A stretch of DNA of 64,000 nt. Origin: Gemmatimonadales bacterium (GTDB taxonomy: Bacteria > Gemmatimonadota > Gemmatimonadetes > Gemmatimonadales > GWC2-71-9). The stretch lies in contig DASYCE010000032.1 of assembly GCA_036500345.1 (NCBI GenBank), forward strand, positions 124,001-188,000. Direction: 5' to 3'. Below, one piece after another: positions 26,810 through 62,799 of this stretch (positions within the stretch are counted from its first letter, which is position 1; each line of letters opens with the position of its first letter). The notes below the pieces were generated by a model. That model did not search any database. It was not told the DNA's origin and was given only the letters and a program-made list of their open reading frames with translations. A program made the position numbers and the translations under genes.

Positions 26810-29800
26810 ATGCACGCACTGCGTAGTATGCGGAAACTTTCCGCCGGGGTTGCCTTGGCGGCGTTCGCGGCAGCACTCCTCCCCGGCACGGCCTCGGCCT
26901 GGCCGGCGCCGGGAGCGAAGCCACAATTCAAGCTCTTCGCTCGCGCCCTCGGATCGATCGGGGTCAACCGCGTCGAGCTCGGATTGGCGAGTCTGGGCAA
27001 CATCGGTGTTGACTCGTCGGGTCGCGGTACGACGCAGGGCGGCTTCTGGCCCCGCGGTACCATCGACAACTACATCTTCAACTCCGGTATTCAGGTCGCC
27101 GGCCAGATTCAGGGGACCAAGCCGACCAATCCGTGGGGCGGCGACACGGCGGGCGGCCTGTTCTTCGACGCCACCGGTCTCCATGAGCATTCCGAAGGTG
27201 TCGAGAACGTCTTCAACTCGGCGAACTCCGCCGACGTCGCGTCGTGGCCTTCGGACGCCTTCGTGCCGCAGGGCGACGCGGTCGCCGATCTGTACGCTAC
27301 GCCGCTGCAGGGATTGGTCAGCGCGTCGCAGGGCGACGTGCACTTCGTCGCGTGGGAAGGGAATCCGGCGCTCATCAACGGCCGCGCCCACCCACTCGGC
27401 ATTCTCGCCGACCACCGGCTCCTCGCGTGGAACTATCCGGCCGGCAACCAGGACGTCGTCTACGTCGTGGTGACGCTGTACAACGTCACCTCGGCCAACT
27501 GCTCGGATTACGCCGCCGCACGTGCCGGAATTCGAGACCTCCTCTGCGCCCAGGGGCAGAAGTTCCAGTCGCTCAACAACGCCAAATACGGCATTACGCT
27601 GCCGACCGGTGGCTACACCATCGGCCCGATGCTCATGGCGTATGCGGCTGATCCAGACGTCGGCAACGCCAGCGACAACTACGCCACGGTCAACCTGCCG
27701 TTCGCGATGGGGATGGCCTACGACGCGACGTTCGGCAAGGGGACCGGTGGGTGGTCGTTCGATCCGGCGATCTTCGCACCGCCGTTCTTCGCCGGCGTCG
27801 GCTTCGTCGGCATGAAGTACCTCAAGGGACCTGATGGCCCGGGGGCGATCCAGCTCTTCACCAACTCGGTGAACGGTGCCGGGAACGCCGACCCTGCCAA
27901 CACGACGATCCTCTACCGCATCCTCGCGGGGACGCCGACTCAGACCGATGGTTCATGCGATGTCCCGGGCGACCCGAAGGTCACCCACATCTGCTTCGTC
28001 AAGAAGGGAACGTTCACGGACATCCGGATGATCGAGTCGTCGAGCCCGCTCACGCTGGCGCCGGGTGAATTCCGTACGATCGTCGTCGCGCTGATCTTCG
28101 CACCGCCGGTGGCATTGCCGGGCTTCGTGCCGAACGCGACGACGAACGTTGATCCGGGTGATCCGACCTGGACCTCCTCGTCCGACTCGATGGTGAAGTA
28201 CAATGGTGCCAACCGGATCGACTCGCTGGCAGGGTTCGCCGGATACAACGGCGGATTGACCAATGGCGACGGCAGCCATCACGACCCGGTCCAGACCGAC
28301 TTCTCGGTGATCAAGGGTTCGGTGATGGCGAAGGCGCTGGTGGCGCAGGCCGTCTTCAACGCGAAATTCCTCCAGGAATTCGCGCCTGACGCACCGCAGT
28401 TCTTCCTGATTCCGGGTGACAAGCAGGTCACGGTCCTCTGGAAGCCGTCAGACACCGAAACGCTGGGCGATCCGTTCTTCGCCGTCGTCGGTTCGCCGCT
28501 GACGAAGGACGCGGACGGCAATTCCATTCCGAATCCGCTCTACGATCCGAACTATCGTCAGTTCGATGTTGAGGGGTACCGGATCTACCGCGGCCGCAGC
28601 GACTCGCCAACCGGCCTTCAGCTCCTGGCGCAGTTCGACTACGCCGGCACGACGTTCAAGGATTTCACCGGCACCGTGGTCAGCGGAAACTGTGCCCCGG
28701 AACTCGGCATCGAGACCGATTGCCCGGTGACCTTCCCGACGCCGACGAATCCGACGCATGCGGGAACGGCGCCGACCAAGTTTGGGACCTTCAACATCGG
28801 GCCGCAGCCCTCGGGCGCTCCGCTGATCTTTGAAGACCAGAGCTGCACGACCTGCCGCGTTCCGCTGGCAGGTGGGACGACGTCGCTCACCGTGACCGCC
28901 GATACGGCGGTCTCTGGTGCACTCGACGGCTCATTCCCCCCGCTCGCGGACACCGGTGTACCGTTCGTCTTCATCGACCGCCTCGGCGCCTGTCAGATCT
29001 GCGGCGTCGTGAACGGCATCAACTACTTCTACTCGGTCACTGCATTCGACGTGAACGCACCGGGCCACGGCCCGACGTCGCTCGAATCGGCGCGTGTCAC
29101 CAAGCAGGTCACGCCGCAAAGCGCGGCCGGGAACACGTCGTCAAGCGGCACCATCGCGGTGAGCGGGCTCAGCGGCCGCGGTGTCGCATTGACCGACACG
29201 ACGCAGCCGACGATTGATACCCTCACGGGCGAATTCTCGAAGAAGATGCCGATCAGCAACTCGGCCTCGCTCTCGGTCGGCATTCTCGTGACCCAGGTCC
29301 TCAAGACTGTCACGGCCACCGTCAAGCTCGACTCGATTCTGCTCAATACCGCTGCATCCGGCGGTGGTGGCAACGAAGTCTTCACCGAATACATGTCGGT
29401 GACGAATACGGCCGGGACGAGCGTATTCTCCATTCCCGCCACGATGAACGAAGCGGACTACGGCGGTGGTGCGACGACGACGTTCTCAGCCGGGTTCGGT
29501 GCGCTGGCAGTCGATTCCGCGTCGTCGAGCGTCTTCGGCGGCGGCAACGGGTTCTCGATCCCCGCAACCATGACCATCCACGTTCCCGGCGGCTACACCA
29601 CAGGGATCATGGGCCGTGGCTGCATCAACGGCGGTACCAGCGGGACGCCGTTCGCAACCAACCCCGCGCGTCTGTGCGCCTATAACGGACCGCGCTGGTT
29701 CATCGGCGACAACGAAACCACGGCCAATCCGAACAGCGACAACGGCGATGCCTTCAATGACGGTTCGCTGCCGGCAACGCTGAACAATGCAGGCGCGCTC

Positions 29801-30847
29801 GCCGGTGTGACTCACATCTGGCGGCCGATCGAGTACTTCATGGTCCCGACGAACTATCGCGATGTGGCTGGTGCGATGTCGCCGTTCATCACGGATGCGG
29901 ATTACCGGATGTACTGGGGCGCCGGCGGCAAGGTCGATTCGGTCATCGATCTGACTGACAACACCGTGGTGCCGTTCGACACGCGAATCACATCCTCGTG
30001 GGGCTTCCTGAATCCATCTGCGGTTACTCAGGCGGGGACATTCGCCAATCGCTCGGATGGCGCCTTGACGTGGACGGCGATCAGCTGCGTTCAACCGCTC
30101 AAGAGCCAATCCGCAATCACGTCGCTGTATCCATGCAGCGGCGCCGCGGCAGCGCTTTCGCAGACCGCTGTTCCAGGACCGGTCCTGATCTGCGTCACAG
30201 GTGACGCGGTCGTTGGGACCTCTGGTCCCTCGGCGGCTTGCGACCAGGCCGTGACGCAGGATCCTTCGTCGGTTTCTGCGACTGGAACCGGCTTCATCCT
30301 GTACCTCAAGGGTCACTACTACATGATGACGCTCGCCGCCGGAGTGCCGGCGTCGGGGACCCAGTGGACCGTGCGCGACTACACCGGGGCAATCACCGGC
30401 GGCAATGGGCGAGCCGGTGCTGGCGGGAAGTATGTGTTCCACCCCGATCCATTCCGGCCGTTCACGGCTCCGGGAATCGGCTTCCAGCTCACGGTCAACA
30501 CGACCAACACGGTCGCCGACGTCACGGGTGACGTCCTGGCGAAGGTGCACACGGTCCCGGATCCGTACTACGTGACCAGCGCGTTCGACCAGTCGGTCGA
30601 TACCAAGGACATCCAGTTCGTGAATGTCCCGGCAAACGCGATCATCCGGATCTACACGGTCAGCGGCGTCCTCGTTCGGGTGCTGCAGAACAACACCAGC
30701 TCGTTCTCGGCGATCGTCCACTGGGACGTGCGTAACCGCACCAACCAGTTCGTGTCCAGCGGCGTGTACTTCTACAACATCGAAGCCGGCGGCCTCAACC
30801 GCACTGGCCGCATGACCATTGTCAACTACGCGAGCACCGTCCAGTAA
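26810..30847 (+). CDS. Large secreted protein with C-terminal FlgD/T9SS-like domain
   Basis: The protein has 1345 residues and a clear signal peptide ending PGTASA. Here +1 is Trp, unlike its neighbours. The bulk is Ser, Thr, Gly and Asn-rich. A fibronectin-like stretch lies near residues 530-625 (KQVTVLWKPSDTE, YRIYRG). The last 95 residues (from about 1250) read like the FlgD-Ig/type A sorting domain of exported proteins: VPDPYYV, NAIIRIYTVSGVLVRVL, SGVYFYNIEA and RTGRMTIVNY. The repeat-rich body is not recognised. PorV lies immediately downstream, which fits surface export by a SprA/PorV route. Confidence 0.8.
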   Translation: MHALRSMRKLSAGVALAAFAAALLPGTASAWPAPGAKPQFKLFARALGSIGVNRVELGLASLGNIGVDSSGRGTTQGGFWPRGTIDNYIFNSGIQVAGQIQGTKPTNPWGGDTAGGLFFDATGLHEHSEGVENVFNSANSADVASWPSDAFVPQGDAVADLYATPLQGLVSASQGDVHFVAWEGNPALINGRAHPLGILADHRLLAWNYPAGNQDVVYVVVTLYNVTSANCSDYAAARAGIRDLLCAQGQKFQSLNNAKYGITLPTGGYTIGPMLMAYAADPDVGNASDNYATVNLPFAMGMAYDATFGKGTGGWSFDPAIFAPPFFAGVGFVGMKYLKGPDGPGAIQLFTNSVNGAGNADPANTTILYRILAGTPTQTDGSCDVPGDPKVTHICFVKKGTFTDIRMIESSSPLTLAPGEFRTIVVALIFAPPVALPGFVPNATTNVDPGDPTWTSSSDSMVKYNGANRIDSLAGFAGYNGGLTNGDGSHHDPVQTDFSVIKGSVMAKALVAQAVFNAKFLQEFAPDAPQFFLIPGDKQVTVLWKPSDTETLGDPFFAVVGSPLTKDADGNSIPNPLYDPNYRQFDVEGYRIYRGRSDSPTGLQLLAQFDYAGTTFKDFTGTVVSGNCAPELGIETDCPVTFPTPTNPTHAGTAPTKFGTFNIGPQPSGAPLIFEDQSCTTCRVPLAGGTTSLTVTADTAVSGALDGSFPPLADTGVPFVFIDRLGACQICGVVNGINYFYSVTAFDVNAPGHGPTSLESARVTKQVTPQSAAGNTSSSGTIAVSGLSGRGVALTDTTQPTIDTLTGEFSKKMPISNSASLSVGILVTQVLKTVTATVKLDSILLNTAASGGGGNEVFTEYMSVTNTAGTSVFSIPATMNEADYGGGATTTFSAGFGALAVDSASSSVFGGGNGFSIPATMTIHVPGGYTTGIMGRGCINGGTSGTPFATNPARLCAYNGPRWFIGDNETTANPNSDNGDAFNDGSLPATLNNAGALAGVTHIWRPIEYFMVPTNYRDVAGAMSPFITDADYRMYWGAGGKVDSVIDLTDNTVVPFDTRITSSWGFLNPSAVTQAGTFANRSDGALTWTAISCVQPLKSQSAITSLYPCSGAAAALSQTAVPGPVLICVTGDAVVGTSGPSAACDQAVTQDPSSVSATGTGFILYLKGHYYMMTLAAGVPASGTQWTVRDYTGAITGGNGRAGAGGKYVFHPDPFRPFTAPGIGFQLTVNTTNTVADVTGDVLAKVHTVPDPYYVTSAFDQSVDTKDIQFVNVPANAIIRIYTVSGVLVRVLQNNTSSFSAIVHWDVRNRTNQFVSSGVYFYNIEAGGLNRTGRMTIVNYASTVQ

Positions 30848-30916: not shown

Positions 30917-32053
30917 ATGATTCGGTTCTCTGTTCTGAAGGGCGCTACTGCAGGCATGCTCCTCCTTGCTCCCGCCATTGCCGCGGCGCAGTCCACGACC
31001 GGCAATGACAACACCGGCTACGGCACTACTGCCGCCGAATTCCTTCTTCTTGGCGCCAACGCCAGGGGGATGGCGCTCGGTGGCGCCTATGCCGCGGTCG
31101 CAACCGACGTCGGCGGCCTCAACGCCAATCCTGGCGCCGTCGCGCTTCTCAAGCGACCGGCGATCCAGGGATCGCAACTGCAGTACGTCGGCGACACCAA
31201 GCTCGATTGGGGTGCAGTCGCACTCCCGTTCGGCGGCGGCTCGAGCGTCCTGGGATTCCAGATCGGGACCTTCGGCTTCTCCGACCAGCCGGTCTACACC
31301 GTTGGCGATCCGGAAGGCACGGGCGCCTTCTACTCGGTCAACGAAACTTTCATCGCCGGTACACTGGCGAAGAACTTTTCGGACCGATTCTCGGTTGGTA
31401 TCACAGCCAAGGGCGTGATCGATCACCTCGGTGACGTCAACGGCAGCGCGTTCGCCGTGGACTTCGGGACGCACTTCCATTCGCAGCTCGGGGGCAAGGC
31501 AGTGCAGTTCGCCTTCTCACTGTCGAACCTCGGCACCAACATGAGTTATTCCGGTGAAGGGCTGAATCAGAAGATCGACCGCGGCGCGACGCGCGATACC
31601 ACACCGGGCCAGGGCGGAATCGTTTCGCTCCCGGTCCCCGTCGGATTGCTCGCCTCGTCGTTCGGCCTTCCGACCCTCTTCCGGGTGGCACTCGCCTACG
31701 ATGTGGTCGAAACGAAGGGCGCCAAGCTGGCGCTGATGGGTGAATTCAACCAGATGCGGTCGAATCGCGGCGCCTTCGGTGGCGGTGCGGAGTTCGCGGC
31801 CGACCACATCGGTGGATCGGGATTCGGCGTGGCGCTGCGCGGGTCATACACCTACAACCCGTCGCTCAGCTACGGCAACACCGGCCTGGTCGGATACGTC
31901 GAGCCAAGCGATGACAAGAACGCCGGCATTGCCTACGGCGGAGGGGTCTGGCTCGCGTCGAAGGGTGGATTCCAACTCGGCTTCGATTACGCCTGGAAGC
32001 GGATCGGCGTGATCGGCGACGTGAACTTCTACACCATTACGCTCGGCTGGTAA
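30917..32053 (+). CDS. porV: PorV/PorQ family outer-membrane protein
   Basis: The protein has 378 residues and a signal peptide ending AIAAA before Gln. The N-terminal segment AAEFLLLGANARGMALGGAYAAVATDVGGLNANPGAVALL (about 37-76) is diagnostic of the PorV/PorQ (UPF0164) family. A beta-barrel ending ITLGW follows. In Bacteroidetes PorV shuttles type 9 secretion cargo from the SprA translocon to the surface. Here it directly follows a large protein with a type-A-like C-terminal domain. The symbol marks the family; whether it is functionally PorV or PorQ is not settled by sequence. Confidence 0.88.
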   Translation: MIRFSVLKGATAGMLLLAPAIAAAQSTTGNDNTGYGTTAAEFLLLGANARGMALGGAYAAVATDVGGLNANPGAVALLKRPAIQGSQLQYVGDTKLDWGAVALPFGGGSSVLGFQIGTFGFSDQPVYTVGDPEGTGAFYSVNETFIAGTLAKNFSDRFSVGITAKGVIDHLGDVNGSAFAVDFGTHFHSQLGGKAVQFAFSLSNLGTNMSYSGEGLNQKIDRGATRDTTPGQGGIVSLPVPVGLLASSFGLPTLFRVALAYDVVETKGAKLALMGEFNQMRSNRGAFGGGAEFAADHIGGSGFGVALRGSYTYNPSLSYGNTGLVGYVEPSDDKNAGIAYGGGVWLASKGGFQLGFDYAWKRIGVIGDVNFYTITLGW

Positions 32054-44204: not shown

Positions 44205-44591
44205 ATGGACGCGGTCATCATCTCACTTCGGCTCGTTCCCGGATCGCCGGTGCTGGCGACTGACACCGGCCGCGCGACCCTCTTCGGGGTCTGGCTCCGC
44301 GAGCGGGTGATCGCCGCCGCGGCGCAGTCGCCGGCGATTCGCTGTCACGTCATCGCGCTCGAGGGCCGCGCGATGTCCGTCGTGCTGGTCCCGGCCGTTC
44401 CGCTCCGGACAAGATCTGCGATTCGCGGATGTGCCGATCGGATCCGTCGGAGGACCGAGCTCGCCGCGCTGGCGATGTGCGGATTGTCCGAGGGCAATCC
44501 GCTCTGGCTACCGGATTACGACTTCACTCTGGCGAGGAGCACCACGGCGATGAGAAGGAAGACGACATTCATCGACCACGCGGCGACGTGA
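44205..44591 (+). CDS. Doubtful 128-residue hypothetical protein
   Basis: This ATG-started frame in the 44143-44515 gap gives a protein beginning MDAVIISLRLVPGSPVLA with no recognised domain. It runs 76 bases into the 3' end of the lptG gene on the other strand, and its C-terminal part (FTLARSTTAMRRKTTF) reads like antisense of that gene. No ribosome-binding site is obvious; GTTGAC and GTCAAC inverted repeats lie just upstream (44178-44198). It may be a real small gene with a wrong end, or non-coding. Confidence 0.3.
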   Translation: MDAVIISLRLVPGSPVLATDTGRATLFGVWLRERVIAAAAQSPAIRCHVIALEGRAMSVVLVPAVPLRTRSAIRGCADRIRRRTELAALAMCGLSEGNPLWLPDYDFTLARSTTAMRRKTTFIDHAAT

Positions 44592-45607
44592 TAGTCGATG
44601 ATTCCCTTGCCGCCGACCGCCTTCATGATCTGCAGGCCGGTGAGGTACGCCAGCGTCGTGCCGAGCGCGATGGCGAGGCCGATCGCGGCGCCCGCGCGGG
44701 CGTTGGTGATGGCAAGCGGGGCGCCGAAGAGGGCCACGATAAGGCAGGCAACCGGCACGGCGTACTTGAGCGGCAATTCGACGCCGAGAGCTCCCGGGTC
44801 GGCGCCTGAGAGCTTGAGGCGCTTGAGATAGTCCCGCAATTCGGCGGTGGTCATCTCCTCGGCCTTCTTGTCCTGGGTCATCAGCGCGGCCGGTGATTCG
44901 CTGAACGGCCTGAGCCGCATGCTCCTGAACTGGAAGGTCGCCAGGACGTCGAGAGAATCCGACACGAGATAGGCGTTGCCGCGCCGGAGTGACCACCACC
45001 CCTTCGACGGGATCCACACAGCGCTGTCGGCGGCGACAGTCCAGCGCTGCCCGGCCGCTGTCTGCGCGCCTTCGCCGACAAAGCCGATCGCCCGCGGCGG
45101 CTGGGCGTGCATCTCCTTGATCCCCCAGGTCCATCCGCTCGGCGATGCGTACGCGAAGGAGCTCCGGAATTGATCGCGCGCCGACGCCTTCTCATGGTGC
45201 AGCTCCTTCTGGCGCGTCGTGCTGTACGACGCCAGCTCCTGCAATTCAAAATCCGCCGGTACCGCGATCGTGGCGAGGATCAGCATCGGCGCGATGAGGC
45301 GGTAGAACGAAATCCCGCCACCCTGGACCGCCGTCAGCTCGCTGTGGCGGCCCAGCGCGTTGAGGGTGAAGACCGTCGCGAAGAGGACTGCGGCGGGGAC
45401 GAGGATCGCCATCTTGGATGGGAAGAGAAAGAGCTCGCCCAGGAAGATCTGGTTGACGGGAACGTGCGCGTCGGAGAGGCGCGCAAAGCGTTCCGACAGA
45501 TCGATGATGACCGCGACCGCCGGCACGCCGAAGGCGGAGATGACGAAGGTGATGCACCATTGCTTCAGGACGTAGCGATCGAGGACGCCGAAGGAACGAA
45601 GACTCAT
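44516..45607 (-). CDS. lptG: LptG-like permease of the lipopolysaccharide exporter
   Basis: The 363-residue protein has the YjgP/YjgQ layout: VLDRYVLKQW before the first membrane segment, two more segments, a periplasmic beta-jellyroll domain (about 130-265), and three C-terminal segments (KYAVPVACLIVALFGAPLAI). With LptF and LptB it pulls lipopolysaccharide out of the inner membrane. It follows and overlaps the lptF gene (ATGA), the normal order. No lptB is in the window. Confidence 0.9.
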   Translation of the reverse strand: MSLRSFGVLDRYVLKQWCITFVISAFGVPAVAVIIDLSERFARLSDAHVPVNQIFLGELFLFPSKMAILVPAAVLFATVFTLNALGRHSELTAVQGGGISFYRLIAPMLILATIAVPADFELQELASYSTTRQKELHHEKASARDQFRSSFAYASPSGWTWGIKEMHAQPPRAIGFVGEGAQTAAGQRWTVAADSAVWIPSKGWWSLRRGNAYLVSDSLDVLATFQFRSMRLRPFSESPAALMTQDKKAEEMTTAELRDYLKRLKLSGADPGALGVELPLKYAVPVACLIVALFGAPLAITNARAGAAIGLAIALGTTLAYLTGLQIMKAVGGKGIIDYHVAAWSMNVVFLLIAVVLLARVKS

Positions 45608-47205
45608 CGTCCCCGCCGCAATCCGCGCACGAATTCGGCGATCGCCGTGAACGGTCCGCCGGTGCGTGACGTGCCCATCTCCCGGTTCGCCGATGCGAGC
45701 GCGAGGATACCGGCCGCAGTAAAGAGGATCAGCGGCGAGTAGAGGGCGACGGCGGGGTTGAGCGCCCCGGTGCGCGCGATGTTCTCACCACCCTGCAGCA
45801 GGATGTAGAAGCCGAGGAAGATGACCAGCGACCCGCCGATGACGAGTCCGATCCCGCTGCCGGGATACTTGAGCGCCAGTGCCATGCCGATCAGGACGAA
45901 GCAGAATGACGCGAGCGGAATCGCAAAACGCTGGTGATACTCCACCTGGTACCGGCGAACCGTCTCCACGGTGCTGTGGAGGCCGTCGCGCAGATCACTG
46001 ACCTGTTGCGCGGTGGTGCTGAGGCCGTTCGTCACGGGAACGATCGGCGGCACGAGGAAACGTTGCGGCTGGAGGACGGTGCCGTTTGTATTGAGTGGCG
46101 ACCCGTGCGGTGCAGTTGATGGCGGTGCCACTGGTTGCTGCGGTGTTGGAGCCACCGGCTTCTGCGGTGATTGTGCCACTGGCTTCTGCGGTGTCTGTGC
46201 CGCCGCCTGCTGCGGCAGCATCAACCGCTTGAACCACGCCTCGACCTTGCGATAGGCGCCGCAGTGCGGTGCGAACTTGACCGGTGCGCGGGCCGACGGA
46301 GGCGGAAGGGCGCCGAGGCCCGAGAGGATCCGCAAGTCGCTGGCGGTGTACTGTTCGATCTGTCGTCGCTGGTTGTCGACGCTCCATTGCTGCGGACCGT
46401 TCATGTCGAGGAGTTCGCAGCTGCTCAGCTCCTTCTCACCGCGATTGGTCTGGTTGCCGGCCAGGTCCAGCTGCGTCTGGACATTGCGAATCGTGACCTT
46501 GTTGTTGACGAACTGCGTCTGCTGCAGCTGGCCCGATTGATCGTTGGCGAATTCGTAGATCTCGCCGTGGTGCAGGAGGAGGACCAGGTCGGTACCGTTC
46601 GCCGATTCGGACATGGTGCCGCTGTCGGCGATGATCAGGCGCCGGGTGTTCTCATAGAAGGGGAGATCGAAGATCGTGACATTGTGCATCCCGCCACTGA
46701 CCGGATCGATGCGGTCGGCGCGGAGGACGTATCCCGACGGGGCCGGCAGGACGTTGAGCACCTGCTGCTGCAGCGCCAGCGTCGGTGACTTGCTCATCGC
46801 CGCTTGCTGGAGGTTGACCAGGCGGGCGTTGCTGCGAGGGCAGAGCTGATCGTACACCAGGAAGTTGACGACGGCGACGCAGGTGGCTGCGAGGAGTGCC
46901 GGGCGCGCCATCCGCCAGACGGAGATGCCGTTGGCGTACATCGCCACCATTTCGAGGGCGGCGGCGAGCTGGCTGTAGCCATATAGCGTGCTGACGAGGA
47001 CCGCCATTGGCAGGGTGAGCGCCACCAGCGCCGGCAGGAAGAGAAGTACAGCTTCGACCATGATCCAGGCGGGGAGCGATCGCCCGCCGAAGCGCTCGAT
47101 CAATGGCGGGAGTGACTGCAACAGCATCATCCCCGTGAGCGCCGCAACACCCCACAGAAAGGGGCCCGTCAGAGACCGCAGGATGTGGCGGGAAATCAGG
47201 CGCAT
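45604..47205 (-). CDS. lptF: LptF-like permease with repeat-containing periplasmic insert
   Basis: The N-terminus LISRHILRSLTGPFLWG and the membrane segments at both ends fit the LptF/LptG family. The 533-residue length is well above the usual 360 or so. The excess is a low-complexity stretch at about residues 328-360 built from Pro-Gln-Lys-Pro-Val-Ala units, inside the region expected to face the periplasm. It precedes and overlaps lptG and is divergent from sprA, with only about 35 bases between the two start regions. Confidence 0.88.
   Translation of the reverse strand: MRLISRHILRSLTGPFLWGVAALTGMMLLQSLPPLIERFGGRSLPAWIMVEAVLLFLPALVALTLPMAVLVSTLYGYSQLAAALEMVAMYANGISVWRMARPALLAATCVAVVNFLVYDQLCPRSNARLVNLQQAAMSKSPTLALQQQVLNVLPAPSGYVLRADRIDPVSGGMHNVTIFDLPFYENTRRLIIADSGTMSESANGTDLVLLLHHGEIYEFANDQSGQLQQTQFVNNKVTIRNVQTQLDLAGNQTNRGEKELSSCELLDMNGPQQWSVDNQRRQIEQYTASDLRILSGLGALPPPSARAPVKFAPHCGAYRKVEAWFKRLMLPQQAAAQTPQKPVAQSPQKPVAPTPQQPVAPPSTAPHGSPLNTNGTVLQPQRFLVPPIVPVTNGLSTTAQQVSDLRDGLHSTVETVRRYQVEYHQRFAIPLASFCFVLIGMALALKYPGSGIGLVIGGSLVIFLGFYILLQGGENIARTGALNPAVALYSPLILFTAAGILALASANREMGTSRTGGPFTAIAEFVRGLRRGR
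46127..46222 (-). repeat. 24-bp in-frame repeat inside lptF
   Basis: Four 24-base units start at 46127, 46151, 46175 and 46199; the last is diverged. Three of them read on the minus strand as eight-residue PQKPVA-type units. The repeat keeps frame, so copy-number change would lengthen or shorten the periplasmic linker without breaking the protein. Confidence 0.8.
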
Positions 47206-47239: not shown

Positions 47240-50200
47240 TTGCAAACTAATCGGCCCAACCTTCGTTTCGTGGCGCGTCTCGCGCTCTTCGTTGCCGTGG
47301 CCGTCGCGGGGCGGTCGCTCCCGGCGGCGGCCCAGGGCGAAAGCCGCGTCGTGCCGGCCGATAGTGCGGGCTTTCTCAATCGCTCGCTCCTCTCCCAGTA
47401 CGTCACCTCGATCCCGACACTGGAACCTCGCCTGCTCCGCGGGCCGCTGTTGCACGATCCGGCGCGGCGCCTGGAGCCGCAGGTCCTCTCGGCCTTCGAC
47501 TCGGCGCTGGCGGCCACCGCCGCCCTGGTCACGACCGGCGTGCGACACCAGTCCGTGATGCGCCGGCTCATGATCCGGTCGCTGGCGGTCGACACGGCGG
47601 CACAGGACACCCATCACGGCCTCTTCGGACTTTCGCCCAACACCGCCGACGTGCTGTTCGACGGCAACTGGGAGGCGCAGCTCAGCTCCACGAAGCAGCG
47701 GAACCTCTCATGCACCCCGGCGCAGGCGGCGCAGCTGTCGTCGGGATGTTTCGGCGGATTCGGCGCGCCGAAGATCGACAACTCGGTGCAGCTCCGCTCG
47801 GCCGGCGTCTTCGCCCAGCGCTTCCACATCAACATCGATTTCGATTCGAAGCGCGACTACGCCGCAGGGAACATCGTCAGCGGCTACTACCAGGGGCTGG
47901 AAGACGAGAAGCTGCAGCGGGTCAACATCGGAACGGTGCAGTTCATCGCGCCGCCGTCGCGCTTCCTCACCGCCAGCATCCCGTCGAACAACTTCGGCAT
48001 CAGCGCGCTGGCGGTATTCGGCCCGGTCTCGGTGCAGGCGATCGCCGCGACGCAGAAGGGGAGCGTCGTGGCCGACAAGCACTACGTGGTGGGAAGTACC
48101 ACCGTCGAACCGCAGGACCGGCTGGTCCGCGACCTCGACTACGAGCAGGGGCGCATTTTCTGGGTGGTCGACCCGCGGACGATCCCCGGCTACCCCGCGG
48201 TCGACATCCTCAACAGCAGTGCGATTTCGCTTCCGACCGATCAGCAGCCGGCGGAGGTCCGCATCTATCGGTACGTGTCGGCCAATCAGGTTGCCGGCGC
48301 GAACTCCAACTATGACGGCGTCACGGCGACCGGGCTCAATGGGTCGGAACACGTCGGACCGCTGCGCTGGCGCCTGCTCAAGCCGAACGTCGACTACTGG
48401 ATCGACCCGTCGGGCCTCTGGTTCATCCTCAAGACGCGGATCGATCCGAACGACAATCTGGCGGTCAGTTACACGACGAAGGCAGGAACGCAGGTCGGAT
48501 CGATCCCGGTCACGGACAACCCCGCCGCGCGCGACTCGGTCCGGCTGATCTACCTGCCGAACCGCGGCCCGGCGTCACCGATCTTCCCCTACGAGATGCG
48601 CCAGGCATATCGCGTGGCAGGAACATCGCTGGTGCGCAGCTCGCTCACTGCGTCGATTCTCGTCGCCAACTCCGAGCGCCCGGCCAATTCGCCCGGGACA
48701 TTTCTCTCGCTCCTTGGCCTGGCGGTCCCCGCTGATCCGGCGGCGCTCGATGTCGACAACCGCCTCTTCCCGAGGGTTCGTGACGCCGGTGCGAGCCAGG
48801 TGATCCAGGATGCTTTGCTGATCTTTCCGAGTGCACAACCATTCAGCAGTACCGGCCTGAGCACGGCGGAGCGGAACGATTCGCTGTATGCCACCCCGGA
48901 GTACCTCCTCCTCAGCCAGGGGCCGCCGTCGAAGTTCCAGTTGCATCTGCAATACAACGCGGCGGGCGGCGCGGGGAATTCGATCACCCTTGACGCGGTG
49001 CAGATCACGGAGGGAAGCGAGCACCTGACGGTGAACGGGCAGCCGCTGGTGCGGAACGTCGACTACACCATCGACTACATCACCGGCCGAGTCACCTTCC
49101 TGAACCCGACGGCGCTCTATGGCAACGGGACCGCCGACGTGGAAGCGTCGTTCGAGCAACGCGGTCTCTTTGCGGTTGCTCCGACGAGCATCGGAGGGCT
49201 GACGGCGACATGGAACCTCGGCCTGCGAAAGTCGATCTCCTTCGCCGGGCTCTACCAGGCCGAAGCGACCGGGTACACTCGTCCCGAAATCGGGTACGAG
49301 CCGAGAGCGTCGCTGCTGCTGGGGATGACCACGGATCTGCAGTGGGACACACCAGCGATCACCCGGTTGTTCAACCATTTCCTCCCGAAAGCGTCGACCG
49401 CGCCGTCGTCGGTCCAGGTCACCGGCGAGCTGGCGATCTCGCGGCCTGATCCCAACCGGTCGGGCGACGCCTATCTCGAGGAGTTCGAGAACAACAACGA
49501 TATCAAGGTCCCGGCGAGCCAGAACTTCTGGCTGATGGGTTCTCTGCCGCAGTCGAATGCGGGAGTGGAATCAACCATTCCGCAGGGATTCGATTCGACC
49601 AACGCGGTGCAACTGATTCTGCAGAATCTGGTGCCCAGCACCCACGATTCCATCACGCAGCTCACGCCCACCGACATCGATCCGACGGTGGCGCTGACGA
49701 AGTCGAGCACGCCGACGATCGAGCCGGTGCTGTGGACGACACTGCACGCCGACACCGCCGGCGGCATCGTGGATTTCCAGTCACGGTCGCACTGGACCCA
49801 GCCGGCGCGGCCGGGGCAGCCCCGGTTCCGCTCGATGACGACCGCGCTCTCGGCGACGGGGACCGACCTCAGCCGCAACGACTATTTCGAATTCGCGCTG
49901 TACCAGTCGAGCGACCATCCGATCGACAAGGCGCAGATGAAGATCGTCATCGATCTCGGCCGTGTCAGCGAAGACGAACTCTCTATCGCGCCAACCTCCT
50001 TCCACGTGCTGGGGCCGGGTGACGCGATTCCGAAGGGCTTTGCGGTCGGGGACACCATCTATACCGGCAGGCAGTACATCGGCTCGGGGCGTCTCGATAC
50101 GGAGAAGAGCTCGTTCGGCACCTGGAACGCCACAACCGATGACAACGGCATTCTCGCCGACCGCCCCGATTCGCTGCTCGGGCCCAACGGCAGTGTGGTC

Positions 50201-53200
50201 CACTTTCCGACGCTCTGCGAGGATTCGCTCGGCACGACGATCTCGTTCTTCCCGTGGGGCGATCTCGGTGCGCGATGCTCGCGACACAACGGCGTGGCGG
50301 ACGCCGAGGATCTCGATGGCGACAACGTCCTCGATGCCCAGGGTTCCGCTGACAATGTCTTCCGGTATGTCGTCGACCTGCACGCCGATTCAGTCCGCAG
50401 CCATGTCATCGTCGACCCGACCTCGGGGGCGAGCGCCTCGTGGACGATCTATCGGGTGCCGCTCCACAACGCCACCGACACGATCGGCTCGCCCGACATT
50501 CATCTGGTCAAGCAGCTGCGGATGACGTTCGTCGCGCCGGGGACGACCGCCGATGCCGAACTCCCGGTGCGATTTGCGCTGGCGTTGATGCAATTCACCG
50601 GCGCGGCGTGGGCGGCACGCGCCGACCGGCCGATCGCCACATTGTCGGGGCCGACCGCAGGATTTTCCGGTTCGGTCCTGGTGGGGAGCGTCTCGACGCA
50701 GGACTCGGCGTCGTCGGGGCTGGGGTACACCTCGCCGCCCGGGATCGGCGACGCCGCGGCGACCGTGTCCGTGACGCAGACGCAGGCGGCAGAGCAGATC
50801 AACGAGACGTCATTGCGGATCCAGGTGGCGTCGCTCGACAGCGGTCAGCGCGCGGAAGCGTATACGCGGCTCGCGAGCGGAACGCGAAACCTCCTCGCCT
50901 ATCGGGAACTTCGCGTCTGGATGCACGGTCACGGTCCCGGCTGGGACAACGGACAGCTGCAGGCGTATGTGAAGGTGGGGAGCGACGCCTACAACTTCTA
51001 CCTGTACCGCGCGCCGGCGCACACGACGACGTGGGATCCGGAGATGCTGATCGACTTGCAGCAGTGGCAGGACCTGCGCGATCAGATCGAGAACGCCCGA
51101 TTGCGCGGCGCGTTGCCTGACCCGGCGGCAGCGCGCGCGTGCGGTGGCGATTCGACGGCGTACGTCGCCTGCAACGGCAACTACATGGTCCAGGTTCGCG
51201 ATCCGCAGGTCAACCCGCCGAATCTCGCCGCCGTGCAGGAACTGGCGGCAGGGATCTACGATCCGGGCCCGAGCGCCATTCCGATCGCGCAAACCGAACT
51301 CTGGGTCGACGATATCCGTGTCTCGCAGCCGGTGTCGTCCATGGGGGTCGCCGGTGCATTCACCGGCCATGTCAGCGCGTCGGATGTTGCCACCTTCGAC
51401 GTGGCCGGCGTGTACGAGAATGGCCAGTTTCACCTGATGGGACAGGATCCGACGTACCAGAACACCTCGTCGCTGACCACCAATGCCACGGTGCATTTCG
51501 ACAAGTTCCTGTCGCCGCGGCTCTGGCTCCGGATTCCGTTCAACATCGCGAGCTCATGGGGATGGGTGGCGCCGCAGCTGATCAGCGGTACCGACGTCAA
51601 CGCGACCGGTATCGATGGGCTCCGGCTGCCGCGCAACGATGCGACGACCTGGTCGTTGAGCGTGAGCCATGTGTCGCACGTCGGCGAAGCGAACCTGACT
51701 CGGCTGATGTTCAACCCGATCTCGTTCAACCTCAACGGATCCGGCGCGACGAACATCTCGTCGCTCTCGGATGTCACGTCGTCGTCGTGGAGCGCGACGG
51801 TCGGATACTTCCTGAACAATCCACGCCGCACCTACCGGCTGCACCTCGGAGGGCTGACCAGCGGACTGCCGCGCTGGCTCCGCCAGAGCGCCGCGGGCCA
51901 GGGAGTGACGAACGCCGCGTTCGCGCCATGGCCGACGGCGATCCAGTTGCAGTCGTCGCTGTCGCACACGATGGGCGACATCGCGTCGTTTTCCGTCCCG
52001 ATCCGGACGCTGGCCGATACCATTCTCAAGCCGGTGACGTCGGAACAGTTTCTCTGGCGCAACCTGGCGGGAATGAACTGGGATCCGCTCGGCATCCTGC
52101 ATTTCACCAGCAGCTGGTCAAGCACGCGCGATCTGCGCCAGTACAGCGACTCCACCACCCTTGGCCGCGTGGTGAACGCGTCGCATCAATCGCTGTTCGG
52201 AACCGACGTCGGTGTTGAGCGCGACCGCACCATGGCCAATACCTTCGGCTTTGCGCCGAGGATTTCGAGCTGGCTCGCGCCGCAGGTGACCGTCGGCACC
52301 AACTTCATCCTGTCGCGCTCCCTGACGACCCGCAATCCGGTGCAGATCGTCGGCGACACGGCGGGTGCCTACATCCTGCCGCAGACGCTCGACAATTCGC
52401 GCGCCACCGAATTCCGGCTGTCGATGGATCCGAGGATCCTCGCGCAGCGGATCTTTGGTGATTCGGGCGGATTGTCCAAGGCGCTGGTCCGCGTCCGGCC
52501 GATCGAATTCTCGCGCCGCTCGACGATCAGCTCGACGTACGACCTCGCGACGTTCTCCCCGGACCTGTCGTACCAGCTCGGTCTCGGGTCATTCGATTCG
52601 TTCCTGCACCACCAGGGGCAGGACGCGATTGGCGCGGCGAAGGGGACCACCACGAATGTGACGGCATCGGTCGATCTGCCGTCGGGCTTCTCGGCGCAGC
52701 TTGCCTATTCGGCGAGTACCAACGACCAGTCGCAGCGGCTGAGCACCGGCGCATTTCTCACCACGACCGGCACGACGCAGAGCTGGCCGCAGGGGCGGTT
52801 CAACTGGTCGCACGTCTTTGCCTCGGGGCCGCTCCTCCAGATGGGGGCAAGTTCGGGGGTGCAGCGTGATCACTCGACGTCGATCTCTCCCTTCACCGAC
52901 GGCACGGTCAGCAGCGCGGCCCAGACCAGCAGCCGTGTGACGCCGAGCCTGACCCTCGCGTTCCGGAACAACGTCCAGTTCATCGCCAGCGGCGAGAACG
53001 ACCAGAGCAGCACGGTCTCCGACGGGAACATCACGCAGACGACGTCGTTGATGCTGAACGGCACGCTGTCGTGGAGCACCAGGTTGCCGAGCTTCATCTC
53101 CGCGACCCGGCGCAGCATCACGCTCAACTTCACCGTGAGCCAGAACAACAACAATTCCTGCATCCAGCGGAGCACCGATTCGACCTGTGTCCCGTATTAC

Positions 53201-53374
53201 GACCTGCGGCGGTTCGAATTCCAGTCGGGATTTGCGGCGTCGCTGCAGCACGCGATCCGGACCGGCTTCCAGTTGAGCTACGTGCTGAACAACGTCGTCT
53301 CGCTCGGCCAGCCGACCCAGACCATCACGCTCAATGTATTCTTCAGCGTACCCCTCAACAGTCTGGGGATGTAG
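47240..53374 (+). CDS. sprA: SprA-like giant outer-membrane translocon protein
   Basis: The protein is about 2044 residues. A signal peptide region (FVARLALFVAVAVAG) ends SLPAAA before Gln. The body matches SprA, the pore of the type 9 secretion system: SIPSNNFGISALAVFG, YEQGRIFWVVDPRTIPGYP, YLEEFENNND and WLMGSLPQSN are in the expected order. SprA forms a 36-strand barrel in Bacteroidetes. The start is unsure: TTG 47240 is used here, while GTG 47270 and TTG 47228 are alternatives, and none has a good ribosome-binding site. The M28 gene starts on the base after the stop. Other T9SS core genes (GldK-N, SprE) are not in the window. Confidence 0.88.
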   Translation: MQTNRPNLRFVARLALFVAVAVAGRSLPAAAQGESRVVPADSAGFLNRSLLSQYVTSIPTLEPRLLRGPLLHDPARRLEPQVLSAFDSALAATAALVTTGVRHQSVMRRLMIRSLAVDTAAQDTHHGLFGLSPNTADVLFDGNWEAQLSSTKQRNLSCTPAQAAQLSSGCFGGFGAPKIDNSVQLRSAGVFAQRFHINIDFDSKRDYAAGNIVSGYYQGLEDEKLQRVNIGTVQFIAPPSRFLTASIPSNNFGISALAVFGPVSVQAIAATQKGSVVADKHYVVGSTTVEPQDRLVRDLDYEQGRIFWVVDPRTIPGYPAVDILNSSAISLPTDQQPAEVRIYRYVSANQVAGANSNYDGVTATGLNGSEHVGPLRWRLLKPNVDYWIDPSGLWFILKTRIDPNDNLAVSYTTKAGTQVGSIPVTDNPAARDSVRLIYLPNRGPASPIFPYEMRQAYRVAGTSLVRSSLTASILVANSERPANSPGTFLSLLGLAVPADPAALDVDNRLFPRVRDAGASQVIQDALLIFPSAQPFSSTGLSTAERNDSLYATPEYLLLSQGPPSKFQLHLQYNAAGGAGNSITLDAVQITEGSEHLTVNGQPLVRNVDYTIDYITGRVTFLNPTALYGNGTADVEASFEQRGLFAVAPTSIGGLTATWNLGLRKSISFAGLYQAEATGYTRPEIGYEPRASLLLGMTTDLQWDTPAITRLFNHFLPKASTAPSSVQVTGELAISRPDPNRSGDAYLEEFENNNDIKVPASQNFWLMGSLPQSNAGVESTIPQGFDSTNAVQLILQNLVPSTHDSITQLTPTDIDPTVALTKSSTPTIEPVLWTTLHADTAGGIVDFQSRSHWTQPARPGQPRFRSMTTALSATGTDLSRNDYFEFALYQSSDHPIDKAQMKIVIDLGRVSEDELSIAPTSFHVLGPGDAIPKGFAVGDTIYTGRQYIGSGRLDTEKSSFGTWNATTDDNGILADRPDSLLGPNGSVVHFPTLCEDSLGTTISFFPWGDLGARCSRHNGVADAEDLDGDNVLDAQGSADNVFRYVVDLHADSVRSHVIVDPTSGASASWTIYRVPLHNATDTIGSPDIHLVKQLRMTFVAPGTTADAELPVRFALALMQFTGAAWAARADRPIATLSGPTAGFSGSVLVGSVSTQDSASSGLGYTSPPGIGDAAATVSVTQTQAAEQINETSLRIQVASLDSGQRAEAYTRLASGTRNLLAYRELRVWMHGHGPGWDNGQLQAYVKVGSDAYNFYLYRAPAHTTTWDPEMLIDLQQWQDLRDQIENARLRGALPDPAAARACGGDSTAYVACNGNYMVQVRDPQVNPPNLAAVQELAAGIYDPGPSAIPIAQTELWVDDIRVSQPVSSMGVAGAFTGHVSASDVATFDVAGVYENGQFHLMGQDPTYQNTSSLTTNATVHFDKFLSPRLWLRIPFNIASSWGWVAPQLISGTDVNATGIDGLRLPRNDATTWSLSVSHVSHVGEANLTRLMFNPISFNLNGSGATNISSLSDVTSSSWSATVGYFLNNPRRTYRLHLGGLTSGLPRWLRQSAAGQGVTNAAFAPWPTAIQLQSSLSHTMGDIASFSVPIRTLADTILKPVTSEQFLWRNLAGMNWDPLGILHFTSSWSSTRDLRQYSDSTTLGRVVNASHQSLFGTDVGVERDRTMANTFGFAPRISSWLAPQVTVGTNFILSRSLTTRNPVQIVGDTAGAYILPQTLDNSRATEFRLSMDPRILAQRIFGDSGGLSKALVRVRPIEFSRRSTISSTYDLATFSPDLSYQLGLGSFDSFLHHQGQDAIGAAKGTTTNVTASVDLPSGFSAQLAYSASTNDQSQRLSTGAFLTTTGTTQSWPQGRFNWSHVFASGPLLQMGASSGVQRDHSTSISPFTDGTVSSAAQTSSRVTPSLTLAFRNNVQFIASGENDQSSTVSDGNITQTTSLMLNGTLSWSTRLPSFISATRRSITLNFTVSQNNNNSCIQRSTDSTCVPYYDLRRFEFQSGFAASLQHAIRTGFQLSYVLNNVVSLGQPTQTITLNVFFSVPLNSLGM

Positions 53375-54283
53375 ATGCTCGGTCGAATCCGCTGTGTTGC
53401 TCTTGCGACGCTCGCCACCCTCATCGGTTGCGGGGCGGGGAGCCCGCCGGCCAAGGAGTTCAACGGCAAGGCGGCGCTCGAGTACCTGACGACGCAGGTG
53501 GCGTTCGGTCCGCGGATCCCCGGAAAACCGGGCCACGCCGCGATGCTGACGTGGCTCGATTCGATGGCTCGCGTGCGCGCCGAGAGCGTCACCGTGCAGC
53601 GGTGGTGGCATCACACGGCGTCGGGCGATTCGATTCCGCTGGCCAACGTGCTGGCGCAGTTCAATCCGAAGGCGACCCAGCGCGTCCTCTATGTTGCGCA
53701 CTGGGATACCCGCCCGCACGCCGACAACGACAAGACCGACAAGAACGGCGTGATGCCCGGCGCGGATGACGGCGGTTCGGGAGTGGCGATCCTCCTCGGA
53801 GTGGCCGATGCGCTCAAGAAGGCGCCGCCGACCGTTGGCGTCGATCTCCTCTTCGTCGATGGCGAAGACTACGGCGATTTTGGTCCGCCGATGGTCGACG
53901 TGCTTCTCGGTGCGGCGTATTACGCCAAGCATCAGCTCGCGCCGTCGCCGATGTTCGCCGTGCTCTGGGACATGGTCGGACACAAGGATCTCAGGATTCC
54001 GCAGGAACAGTTTTCGACCATCGCCGCTCCGGACCTCGTGAGCCGCGTCTGGAAGATCGCCGACCAGATGGGGTACGGTCACATCTTTACCGATGAGAAA
54101 TACGGCGGGATCACCGACGATCACATACCACTGATCGATGCCGGCATTCAGGCGATCGACATCATCGACATCAACTATCCGTACTGGCACACCACGCAGG
54201 ATACGCCCGACAAGGAGTCGGTCGAGAGTCTCGAGGCGGTGGGCAACGTCGCCGTCGGCGTGATCCGTCGCGCCGGGAAGTGA
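53375..54283 (+). CDS. M28-family lipoprotein, glutaminyl-cyclase-like
   Basis: The 302-residue protein starts on the base after the sprA stop. Lipobox TLIGC gives Cys19. The M28 fold segments are AHWDTRP (108-114), PGADDGGSGVAILL with Asp131, FVDGEDYG with Glu164, DDHIPLIDAG and YWHTTQD with His272. The last two resemble glutaminyl-peptide cyclotransferases, where a Trp-His-Thr and a single zinc (Asp, Glu, His) form the site. The His of human QC after DDHIPF is not conserved (DII here), so aminopeptidase activity is the alternative. Its neighbour sprA and the many +1 glutamines in this window favour the cyclase reading. Confidence 0.82.
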   Translation: MLGRIRCVALATLATLIGCGAGSPPAKEFNGKAALEYLTTQVAFGPRIPGKPGHAAMLTWLDSMARVRAESVTVQRWWHHTASGDSIPLANVLAQFNPKATQRVLYVAHWDTRPHADNDKTDKNGVMPGADDGGSGVAILLGVADALKKAPPTVGVDLLFVDGEDYGDFGPPMVDVLLGAAYYAKHQLAPSPMFAVLWDMVGHKDLRIPQEQFSTIAAPDLVSRVWKIADQMGYGHIFTDEKYGGITDDHIPLIDAGIQAIDIIDINYPYWHTTQDTPDKESVESLEAVGNVAVGVIRRAGK

Positions 54284-59283: not shown

Positions 59284-60078
59284 ATGCGCGTTTCGCGTTG
59301 TGTCGTCGCGGCAATCGCTCTTGGCCTGGCCGCCGCCCCGCTGGCGGCGCAGGACAACTACGAGATCCAGGTGTATGGCTCCGAGCTCGTCGCCCCCGGC
59401 GCGACGATGGTCGAGCTCCACAGCAACTACACCAACCATACCGGCGTCGACATCGGGCCAGGGATGGTGTCGACGTATCACGCGCTGCACGAGACGGTCG
59501 AGATCACCCACGGCTTCAATTCGTTCTTCGAACTGGGGTACTACAACTTCACGTCGATCAATCCCGATGGCGGATTCAACTGGGTCGGCACCCACCTGCG
59601 GCCCCGGTTCTCGGTCCCCGCCAGCTGGCACTGGCCGGTCGGCGTGTCGATCTCCCAGGAGTTCGGCTACCAGCGGAAGGAATTCTCCCCGGATACCTGG
59701 ACGTACGAATTCCGTCCGATCATCGACCAGAAGCTCGGGCGCTTCTACTGGGCGGTCAATCCATCACTGGAGCTCTCGCTCAAGGGCGAGGGGCAGCACA
59801 ACGGCTTCGAATTCTCGCCCAATGTGCAGGTGGGCCTGGACGTGAGTCGCCGGGTCAACCTGGCGCTGGAGTATTACGGCAACTTCGGGCCGCTGTCAGG
59901 GTTCGATCCGGTGTCGCAGACTGAGCAGGAGCTCTTCCCGGCGATCAACTACGATTTCGGGCCGGACTGGGAGTTCAACCTCGGCGTCGGGATGGCGCTC
60001 ACCAGCCACACCGATGTGGTCGGTCTCAAGATGATCATCGGGCATCGATTCGGGATCACCAACCGGAAAACGCCGTAG
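59284..60078 (+). CDS. Outer-membrane beta-barrel-like protein
   Basis: The ATG at 59284 gives 264 residues. The signal peptide ends APLAA before Gln. The rest alternates aromatic and charged residues in short strands (HETVEITHGFNSFFELGYYNF, VGVSISQEFGYQRKEF) and lacks enzyme motifs. This fits a small barrel or periplasmic beta protein. The N-terminal part YEIQVYGSE is reminiscent of Gemmatimonadota proteins, but I cannot name a family. It lies between the pilus genes and an M1 peptidase, with its own short upstream region. Confidence 0.75.
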   Translation: MRVSRCVVAAIALGLAAAPLAAQDNYEIQVYGSELVAPGATMVELHSNYTNHTGVDIGPGMVSTYHALHETVEITHGFNSFFELGYYNFTSINPDGGFNWVGTHLRPRFSVPASWHWPVGVSISQEFGYQRKEFSPDTWTYEFRPIIDQKLGRFYWAVNPSLELSLKGEGQHNGFEFSPNVQVGLDVSRRVNLALEYYGNFGPLSGFDPVSQTEQELFPAINYDFGPDWEFNLGVGMALTSHTDVVGLKMIIGHRFGITNRKTP

Positions 60079-62181: not shown

Positions 62182-62799
62182 TCAACGATCGATCGGCTGG
62201 GCGGCGGAACTGTCTGGCCGGGCGCGGCGCCGCATGCCGAGCGAGTCGCCGAACGGGCGCCGTCCGCCGCGGCCGCGGAACGCCATCGCCGAATCACCGG
62301 GCCGCCCGCGGCGCAGCATCGCTCCGTTTCCCATCGACGGGGCGCCGAACCGTCCTCGGGGCCCGAGTGCTGCAGGGCCGCGCATCATGCCTGGACGCAT
62401 CAGTCCGCGCCGCATCTCCATCGGTGCACCTCGCATCGCCATCGGTGGCCTGCGGTTCGCCATCGCATTGCGTCGCATCGCCATGCCGCCGCGTCGTGGT
62501 CCGCGAAAGCGCGCCATCCGGGCCCGCATCACGCCGTTGGCGCGGCCGAACCTCCGTCCATGCCAGCCGGCGGCGTCGAGCTCCTTGCGCATCCGGTCGC
62601 GGGTGCGCCGAAGCGATGCGCGCTGATTGTCGAGCTCCTGCTGATACCGTTGCCGGATCGCGTCAAAGCGCTTGGCCGAGTCGGCGCTCGACCGTGGCGC
62701 TGCGGCGCGGGCTCTCGGCGCGGGACGAGCCGGCACCTGCGCCGTGAGAGGAACTGCAAGAAAGGTTGCTGCTGCCATCACCATCCACGCGTTGCGCAT
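62182..62799 (-). CDS. Secreted Met/Arg/Gly-rich protein
   Basis: The 205-residue protein has a signal peptide ending VPLTA before Gln. After a helical, coiled-coil-like region (RFDAIRQRYQQELDNQRASL) come about 100 residues rich in Met, Arg, Gly and Pro, with many short MR, MAMR and RRG units. Such tails can bind metal ions or nucleic acid. It is not a clear member of the Spy/CpxP family because no LTxxQ motif is present. The role is unknown. The base composition is biased but the frame is clean. Confidence 0.72.
   Translation of the reverse strand: MRNAWMVMAAATFLAVPLTAQVPARPAPRARAAAPRSSADSAKRFDAIRQRYQQELDNQRASLRRTRDRMRKELDAAGWHGRRFGRANGVMRARMARFRGPRRGGMAMRRNAMANRRPPMAMRGAPMEMRRGLMRPGMMRGPAALGPRGRFGAPSMGNGAMLRRGRPGDSAMAFRGRGGRRPFGDSLGMRRRARPDSSAAQPIDR

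What the first reader, a model, noticed from the sequence alone, without database searches (positions are those of the whole stretch)
53375..54283. Glutaminyl-cyclase-like lipoprotein abuts sprA
The M28 lipoprotein gene begins on the base after the sprA stop. It has a WHT motif and DDHIPL segment close to glutaminyl cyclases. A cyclase that caps +1 Gln would complete the Q-rule, and its linkage to sprA suggests coupling to surface export.
Basis: partly seen in the sequence, partly recalled or inferred. Interest (0 to 1): 0.68.

Follow-up and report, generated by a model that had tools for sequence, protein, structure and literature searches.

The report
N-terminal-capping enzyme gene beside sprA
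The gene right behind the outer-membrane export gene sprA in this bacterium almost certainly makes a glutaminyl cyclase, the enzyme that seals the first amino acid of exported proteins; the bacterium's exported proteins start with glutamine far more often than chance, so a 'Q-rule' described as special to Bacteroidetes is probably at work in Gemmatimonadota too.

Summary
Confirmed: a 302-aa M28 lipoprotein gene (53375-54283, +) starts on the base after the sprA stop. It is a type II glutaminyl cyclase (QC) by sequence, predicted fold and active-site signature: best PDB sequence matches are PgQC and TfQC, the top 50 Foldseek hits are all QCs or Bacteroidetes homologues reassigned as QCs, and the D-G/E-D/DDH/W-H signature is absent from 19 other M28 proteins of the same genome. 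Activity is untested. Gln is strongly over-represented at the predicted signal-peptidase +1 position in this genome and eight relatives (pooled 41-46% versus 4-6% at +2..+12). Across 249 Gemmatimonadota genomes the M28 QC (166) and the unrelated type I QC (86) tend to exclude each other (odds ratio 0.06; by genus 0.17, p=2e-4), pointing to QC as the conserved function. The sprA-QC pair is old (six phyla), but within Gemmatimonadota QC and sprA occur independently (odds ratio 1.06), and QC stays in place where sprA is gone. So 'a QC that completes a Q-rule' is well supported; 'coupled to SprA export' is not shown. New here: Q-rule and QC exchange outside Bacteroidetes, and the deep sprA-QC linkage.

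The parts
53375..54283 (+). Type II (M28) glutaminyl cyclase gene, 302 aa lipoprotein
53420..53431 (+). Lipobox L16-I17-G18-C19 of the QC
   Evidence: read from the translation
53768..53773 (+). Predicted Zn ligand D132 followed by the QC-diagnostic G133
   Evidence: aligned with PgQC D149-G150
53864..53869 (+). Predicted catalytic E164 and Zn ligand D165 (E-D, not E-E)
   Evidence: aligned with PgQC E182-D183
53969..53971 (+). D199, counterpart of human QC D248
54116..54130 (+). D248-D249-H250-I251-P252 segment
54185..54193 (+). WHT motif: W271 and Zn ligand H272
   Evidence: aligned with PgQC W298-H299
47270..53374 (+). sprA (T9SS outer-membrane translocon homologue); start uncertain (TTG 47240 or GTG 47270); predicted mature N-terminus Gln at 47333 (AAA|QGES)
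44516..47205 (-). Divergent lptF/lptG-family pair upstream of sprA
   Evidence: PF03739
54361..54996 (+). ComEA-like helix-hairpin-helix gene downstream of QC
   Evidence: PF12836
55039..59149 (+). Type IV pilus/type II secretion-like ATPase, ATPase and PilC-like genes (rest of the conserved block)
   Evidence: PF00437 twice, PF00482
30917..32053 (+). PorV-family gene, predicted mature N-terminus Gln (AAA|QSTT)
   Evidence: NF033709

Best explanation
The gene encodes an exported lipoprotein glutaminyl cyclase of the bacterial type II family. After Sec export and signal peptidase I cleavage, many envelope proteins of this bacterium expose an N-terminal Gln; this enzyme is predicted to cyclise it to pyroglutamate using one Zn (D132, D165, H272) with E164 and D199 as acid-base residues, and so protect the proteins from the cell's own many exported exopeptidases. 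Its place behind sprA is an old gene order of an envelope locus lptFG-sprA-QC-comEA-pil; the substrates are exported proteins in general (SprA and the PorV-family protein among them), not only SprA clients. Shown by computation: family, active-site signature, predicted fold, +1 Gln bias, exchange with type I QC, gene order. Inferred: cyclase activity, periplasmic side, protective role.
For: Best PDB matches PgQC 6qql 4e-48 and TfQC 6qro 7e-48; the aminopeptidase YwaD only 4e-6. AF2 model pLDDT 93.8; the top 50 Foldseek PDB hits are all QCs or Bacteroidetes homologues reassigned as QCs (reassignment in PMC7948796). D-G/E-D/DDH/W(or H)-H signature in the window protein and, with two D-A exceptions, in all orthologues compared; 19 M28 paralogues of the same genome read D-[N/D], E-E (one gapped), [STAG]-D and mostly Y. 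Gln at +1 in 55/134 predicted substrates of five QC2 genomes versus 5.8% at +2..+12, p=1e-32. QC2 and type I QC (PF05096) exchange: 141 QC2 only, 61 QC1 only, 25 both, 22 neither of 249, p=1e-19; by genus OR 0.17, p=2e-4. Several type I QCs also show lipoboxes.
Against: No enzyme assay and no N-terminal proteomics. The loop before WHT is short and PgQC F294 and W193 have no clear match; some orthologues have HHT in place of WHT, so substrate preference may differ. The signal-peptide caller is home-made. About 20 genomes have neither QC, yet a small sample of three of them still shows some +1 Gln excess (6/24), so either a third QC exists or the bias does not strictly need one.
Confidence: 0.88

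Rival explanations
1. It is a di-zinc M28 aminopeptidase that trims exported proteins or imported peptides.
For: M28 family name; the two extra ligands of the second Zn site (H109, D199) are present; QC-type proteins have been annotated as aminopeptidases in the PDB (3tc8, 4fuu).
Against: D-G and E-D in place of D-[N/D] and E-E; 19 aminopeptidase-type M28 proteins already in the genome; sequence and fold nearest to QCs; exchange with the unrelated type I QC.
Confidence: 0.05
2. It is a QC dedicated to SprA-dependent surface export, acting on SprA or its clients.
For: sprA-QC pair adjacent in 75 of 95 Gemmatimonadota genomes with coordinates for both and in loci titled Calditrichia, Zixibacteria, Marinimicrobia, KSB1 and Bacteroidota; SprA and the PorV-family protein are predicted +1 Gln substrates.
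Against: Presence of QC and sprA is independent (OR 1.06); QC is kept in place without sprA; G127 with neither sprA nor PorV hit still has Q+1 at 46%; the cargo-like protein at 26810-30847 has no +1 Gln by eye.
Confidence: 0.15
3. The +1 Gln bias is only a signal-peptidase or composition preference and the QC acts on something else.
For: Some +1 Gln excess in genomes with neither QC (6/24).
Against: Peak confined to +1; one or other QC present in 227 of 249 genomes, with complementary distribution.
Confidence: 0.08

Closest known systems
PgQC of Porphyromonas gingivalis and TfQC of Tannerella forsythia (6qql, 6qro)
   Same: M28 fold, lipoprotein (PgQC per PMC7948796), D-G / E-D / DDH / W-H active-site residues, 35-37% identity in the structural alignment, +1 Gln substrates in the same cell
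   Different: Gemmatimonadota clade; shorter loop before WHT with no clear F294; Val where PgQC has W193; W200 is Tyr and the P204-H205 loop is not kept; gene sits behind sprA
QCs from Fimbriiglobus ruber (7d1b) and an Acidobacteriales bacterium (7d18)
   Same: Bacterial type II QC fold outside Bacteroidetes
   Different: 27-32% identity; no paper on them found in the held library, so no sprA or Q-rule link known here
Animal type II QC (human, Drosophila, Ixodes)
   Same: Fold and acid-base residues
   Different: About 20% identity; Zn ligand Glu202 of human QC is Asp165 here; Gly133 where human has Ser160
Type I QC (PF05096)
   Same: Known to catalyse the same reaction in its named members; several here also look like lipoproteins; complementary distribution
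   Different: Evolutionarily unrelated enzyme
Bacteroidetes Q-rule (PMC5837995, PMC10653852)
   Same: Strong +1 Gln in signal peptidase I substrates plus an exported QC
   Different: Described as a Bacteroidetes feature; Gemmatimonadota not mentioned in the two papers; here either type I or type II QC is present

Membership tests
Bacterial type II glutaminyl cyclase | M28 alpha/beta fold nearest to QCs | tested here: met
Bacterial type II glutaminyl cyclase | Zn ligands Asp, Asp, His (PgQC D149, D183, H299) | tested here: met
   D132, D165, H272 align
Bacterial type II glutaminyl cyclase | Gly after the first Zn Asp where aminopeptidases have Asn/Asp | tested here: met
   G133; 19 paralogues have N or D
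Bacterial type II glutaminyl cyclase | Catalytic Glu and Asp (human E201, D248) | tested here: met
   E164, D199
Bacterial type II glutaminyl cyclase | Pocket aromatics W298 and F294 of PgQC | tested here: inconclusive
   W271 matches; F294 falls in a shortened loop (NYPYWHT); some orthologues have HHT
Bacteroidal QC subgroup | Residues conserved in bacteroidal QCs: Q90, R118, D175, W200, P204, H205, Y209 | tested here: not met
   R118 and D175 match, Q90 probably; W200 is Tyr and the P204-H205 loop is not kept. This limits membership of the bacteroidal subgroup, not of type II QC.
Bacterial type II glutaminyl cyclase | Glutaminyl cyclase activity with one Zn | not testable with these tools
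   Needs enzyme and structure
M28 aminopeptidase | D-[N/D] and E-E double-zinc signature | tested here: not met
Q-rule | Position-specific Gln excess at +1 of signal peptidase I substrates | tested here: met
   (home-made predictor)
Q-rule | Pyroglutamate at these N-termini | not testable with these tools
   Needs N-terminal proteomics
QC as a dedicated part of a SprA/T9SS locus | Presence of QC depends on presence of sprA | tested here: not met
   OR 1.06, p=0.88

The most novel reading that the evidence does not exclude
Pyroglutamate capping of exported proteins is an ancestral envelope trait of a broad group (Gemmatimonadota, Bacteroidota, Marinimicrobia, Zixibacteria, KSB1, Calditrichota) that carried a sprA-QC gene pair, and Gemmatimonadota have repeatedly swapped the type II QC for an unrelated type I QC while keeping the Q-rule.
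Probability: 0.55. Interest if true: 0.75.

Novelty: new member of a known kind. Interest (0 to 1): 0.62.

Why it matters
The Q-rule is described as a Bacteroidetes feature and explained by heavy proteolysis around those bacteria. The same +1 Gln bias with a matching QC in Gemmatimonadota, and exchange with an unrelated type I QC, would make N-terminal capping a wider envelope strategy and turns 'why is QC essential?' into a comparative question. It also gives a residue signature (D-G/E-D/DDH) for telling QCs from aminopeptidases where such genes are annotated only as M28 peptidase.

Tried and rejected
Aminopeptidase reading: rejected on signature, fold and paralogue comparison. SprA-only role: weakened by independent occurrence and by the kept locus without sprA. 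Hidden QC2 in genomes with neither QC: the fetched M28 hits whose active site could be aligned carry the aminopeptidase signature; three (L184, L186, L189) gave no usable alignment, and of these G173 (L184) is a partial QC2 hit, residues 4-84, just behind sprA, probably a broken-off gene. QC2 remnant behind sprA in the QC1-only genus g31: none found in the loci fetched. GldM search rang nowhere, so it is uninformative. E. coli and Prevotella controls were small (8 and 7 proteins); the main control is positional (+2..+12). No paper on QC in Gemmatimonadota in the held library.

Full report
Observation. The ORF at 53375-54283 (+) is 302 aa, starts with ATG on the base after the sprA TAG (53374), and carries a lipobox (LIGC) and the motifs TDDHIPL and YWHT. 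It is Peptidase_M28 (5e-32). Upstream is SprA (TIGR04189, 1.9e-131).

What it is. A sequence search of the PDB puts bacterial glutaminyl cyclases first (PgQC 6qql 4e-48, TfQC 6qro 7e-48), animal QCs next, and an aminopeptidase only at 4e-6. PgQC's Zn ligands D149, D183, H299 and the following Gly150 (PMC7948796) align with D132, D165, H272 and G133; E164 and D199 match the acid-base residues. The same genome has 22 M28 matches; the 19 other proteins I aligned read D-[N/D], E-E (one gapped), [STAG]-D and mostly Y-H, whereas the window protein and its orthologues read D-G, E-D, D-D and W-H, with HHT in some and D-A in one. The same signature holds in homologues from loci titled Gemmatimonadota, Bacteroidota, Marinimicrobia, Zixibacteria, KSB1, Calditrichota, Poribacteria and Armatimonadota; the Cloacimonadota row has D-A. 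An AlphaFold2 model (pLDDT 93.8) finds QCs, or Bacteroidetes homologues that PMC7948796 reassigns as QCs, in all of the top 50 PDB matches. A tree puts these proteins in one clade apart from four of the genome's own M28 paralogues (100/100) and the Gemmatimonadota rows together (95/89). Differences from PgQC: a shorter loop before WHT with no clear F294, Val for W193, and the W200/P204/H205 patch not kept.

Substrates. With a home-made signal-peptide caller that ignores +1 except to penalise Pro there, Gln at +1 is 38% in the window's genome (18/47) and 21-57% in eight relatives with type II or type I QC. Pooled: 55/134 (41%) in QC2 genomes and 31/68 (46%) in QC1-only genomes, against 5.8% and 3.5% at +2..+12 (p=1e-32 and 4e-27). 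Counting any acceptable cleavage site gives 57-60%. In the window, by eye, SprA (AAA|QGES), the PorV-family protein (AAA|QSTT), a TonB-type protein (AMA|QGAT), 59284-60078 (LAA|QDNY) and the M1 peptidase (LGA|QVVQ) fit; the cargo-like protein 26810-30847 does not. The two Q-rule papers do not mention Gemmatimonadota; they call the feature Bacteroidetes-specific while noting scattered high values elsewhere (PMC5837995, PMC10653852).

Exchange of QCs. In the same 249 Gemmatimonadota genomes the M28 QC is found in 166 and the unrelated type I QC in 86: 141 QC2 only, 61 QC1 only, 25 both, 22 neither (OR 0.064, p=1e-19). By genus the OR is 0.17 (p=2e-4), and in genera g10, g34 and g37 species with both sit beside species with QC1 only, as expected if one replaces the other after a gain. 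Several type I QCs have lipoboxes too. One genome counted as neither, G173, has a partial QC2 hit just behind sprA. These counts are not corrected for phylogeny beyond the genus step, and f6 QC2 matches are weaker, so a few may be paralogues.

Link to sprA. Of 95 genomes with listed coordinates for both genes, 75 have QC just behind sprA on the same strand; 18 have them on different contigs, where adjacency often cannot be judged, and 2 are unlinked on one contig. Loci from a second, named collection show sprA directly upstream (gaps of -7 to 313 nt) in Gemmatimonadota, Calditrichia, Zixibacteria, Marinimicrobia, KSB1 and one Bacteroidota MAG: an old gene pair. Yet presence is independent (118 both, 48 QC2 only, 58 sprA only, 25 neither; OR 1.06, p=0.88). 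Without sprA the QC sits in the same block between the lptFG pair and the pil genes (G017, G131, G117, G127, G071); in genus g31 sprA stays, the pil block follows and no QC is found there. The lpt and pil names in other genomes rest on N-terminal resemblance to the window genes typed. G127, with QC2 but no sprA or PorV hit, still has Q+1 at 46%. So the linkage is real but does not show a SprA-specific role. G018's contig (4,636,964 bases) is, from memory, the size of Gemmatimonas aurantiaca T-27; that is a lead, not a test.

Mechanism. Shown by computation: family, signature, predicted fold, +1 Gln bias, QC exchange, gene order. Inferred: that the lipoprotein faces the periplasm, cyclises +1 Gln after signal peptidase I, and so guards exported proteins against the cell's own exopeptidases (22 M28 matches, an M1-family protein with a signal peptide). 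The guarding role follows work on P. gingivalis (PMC10653852).

Limits. No activity data; small samples for the neither class (24 proteins, Q+1 25%, not distinguishable from carriers) and for the E. coli and Prevotella controls; signal-peptide caller not benchmarked; MAG labels as deposited.

Noticed in passing
window 26810-30847 and 30917-32053 (+): A 1345-aa exported-looking protein with a T9SS type A sorting-like C-terminus (TIGR04183; over the cut-off in the genome search, slightly under it in the whole-protein scan) directly followed by a PorV-family gene: a possible SprA cargo and shuttle pair.
   Followed up: partly
Genomes G032, G033, G159 and others (mostly families f5 and f7): Gemmatimonadota with neither type I nor type II QC; a small sample of G159, G033, G148 and G032 still shows some +1 Gln excess. 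A third QC or an uncapped bias is possible.
   Followed up: partly
L213:7668-8861 (G156): A short ORF directly upstream of QC that looks like a SprA C-terminal remnant, although another sprA lies elsewhere in that genome.
   Followed up: no
window 45604-47205 (-): LptF/LptG-family permease with a long repeat-like Pro/Gln-rich insert (AQTPQKPVAQSPQKPVAPTPQQPVAPP).
   Followed up: no
G000, 22 matches: Very many M28 peptidases for a 3.3 Mb genome, most in open frames over 500 aa.
   Followed up: partly
window 62182-62799 (-): Arg/Met/Pro-rich 205-aa ORF with a signal-peptide-like start and +1 Gln (LTA|QVPA); no family search made.
   Followed up: no
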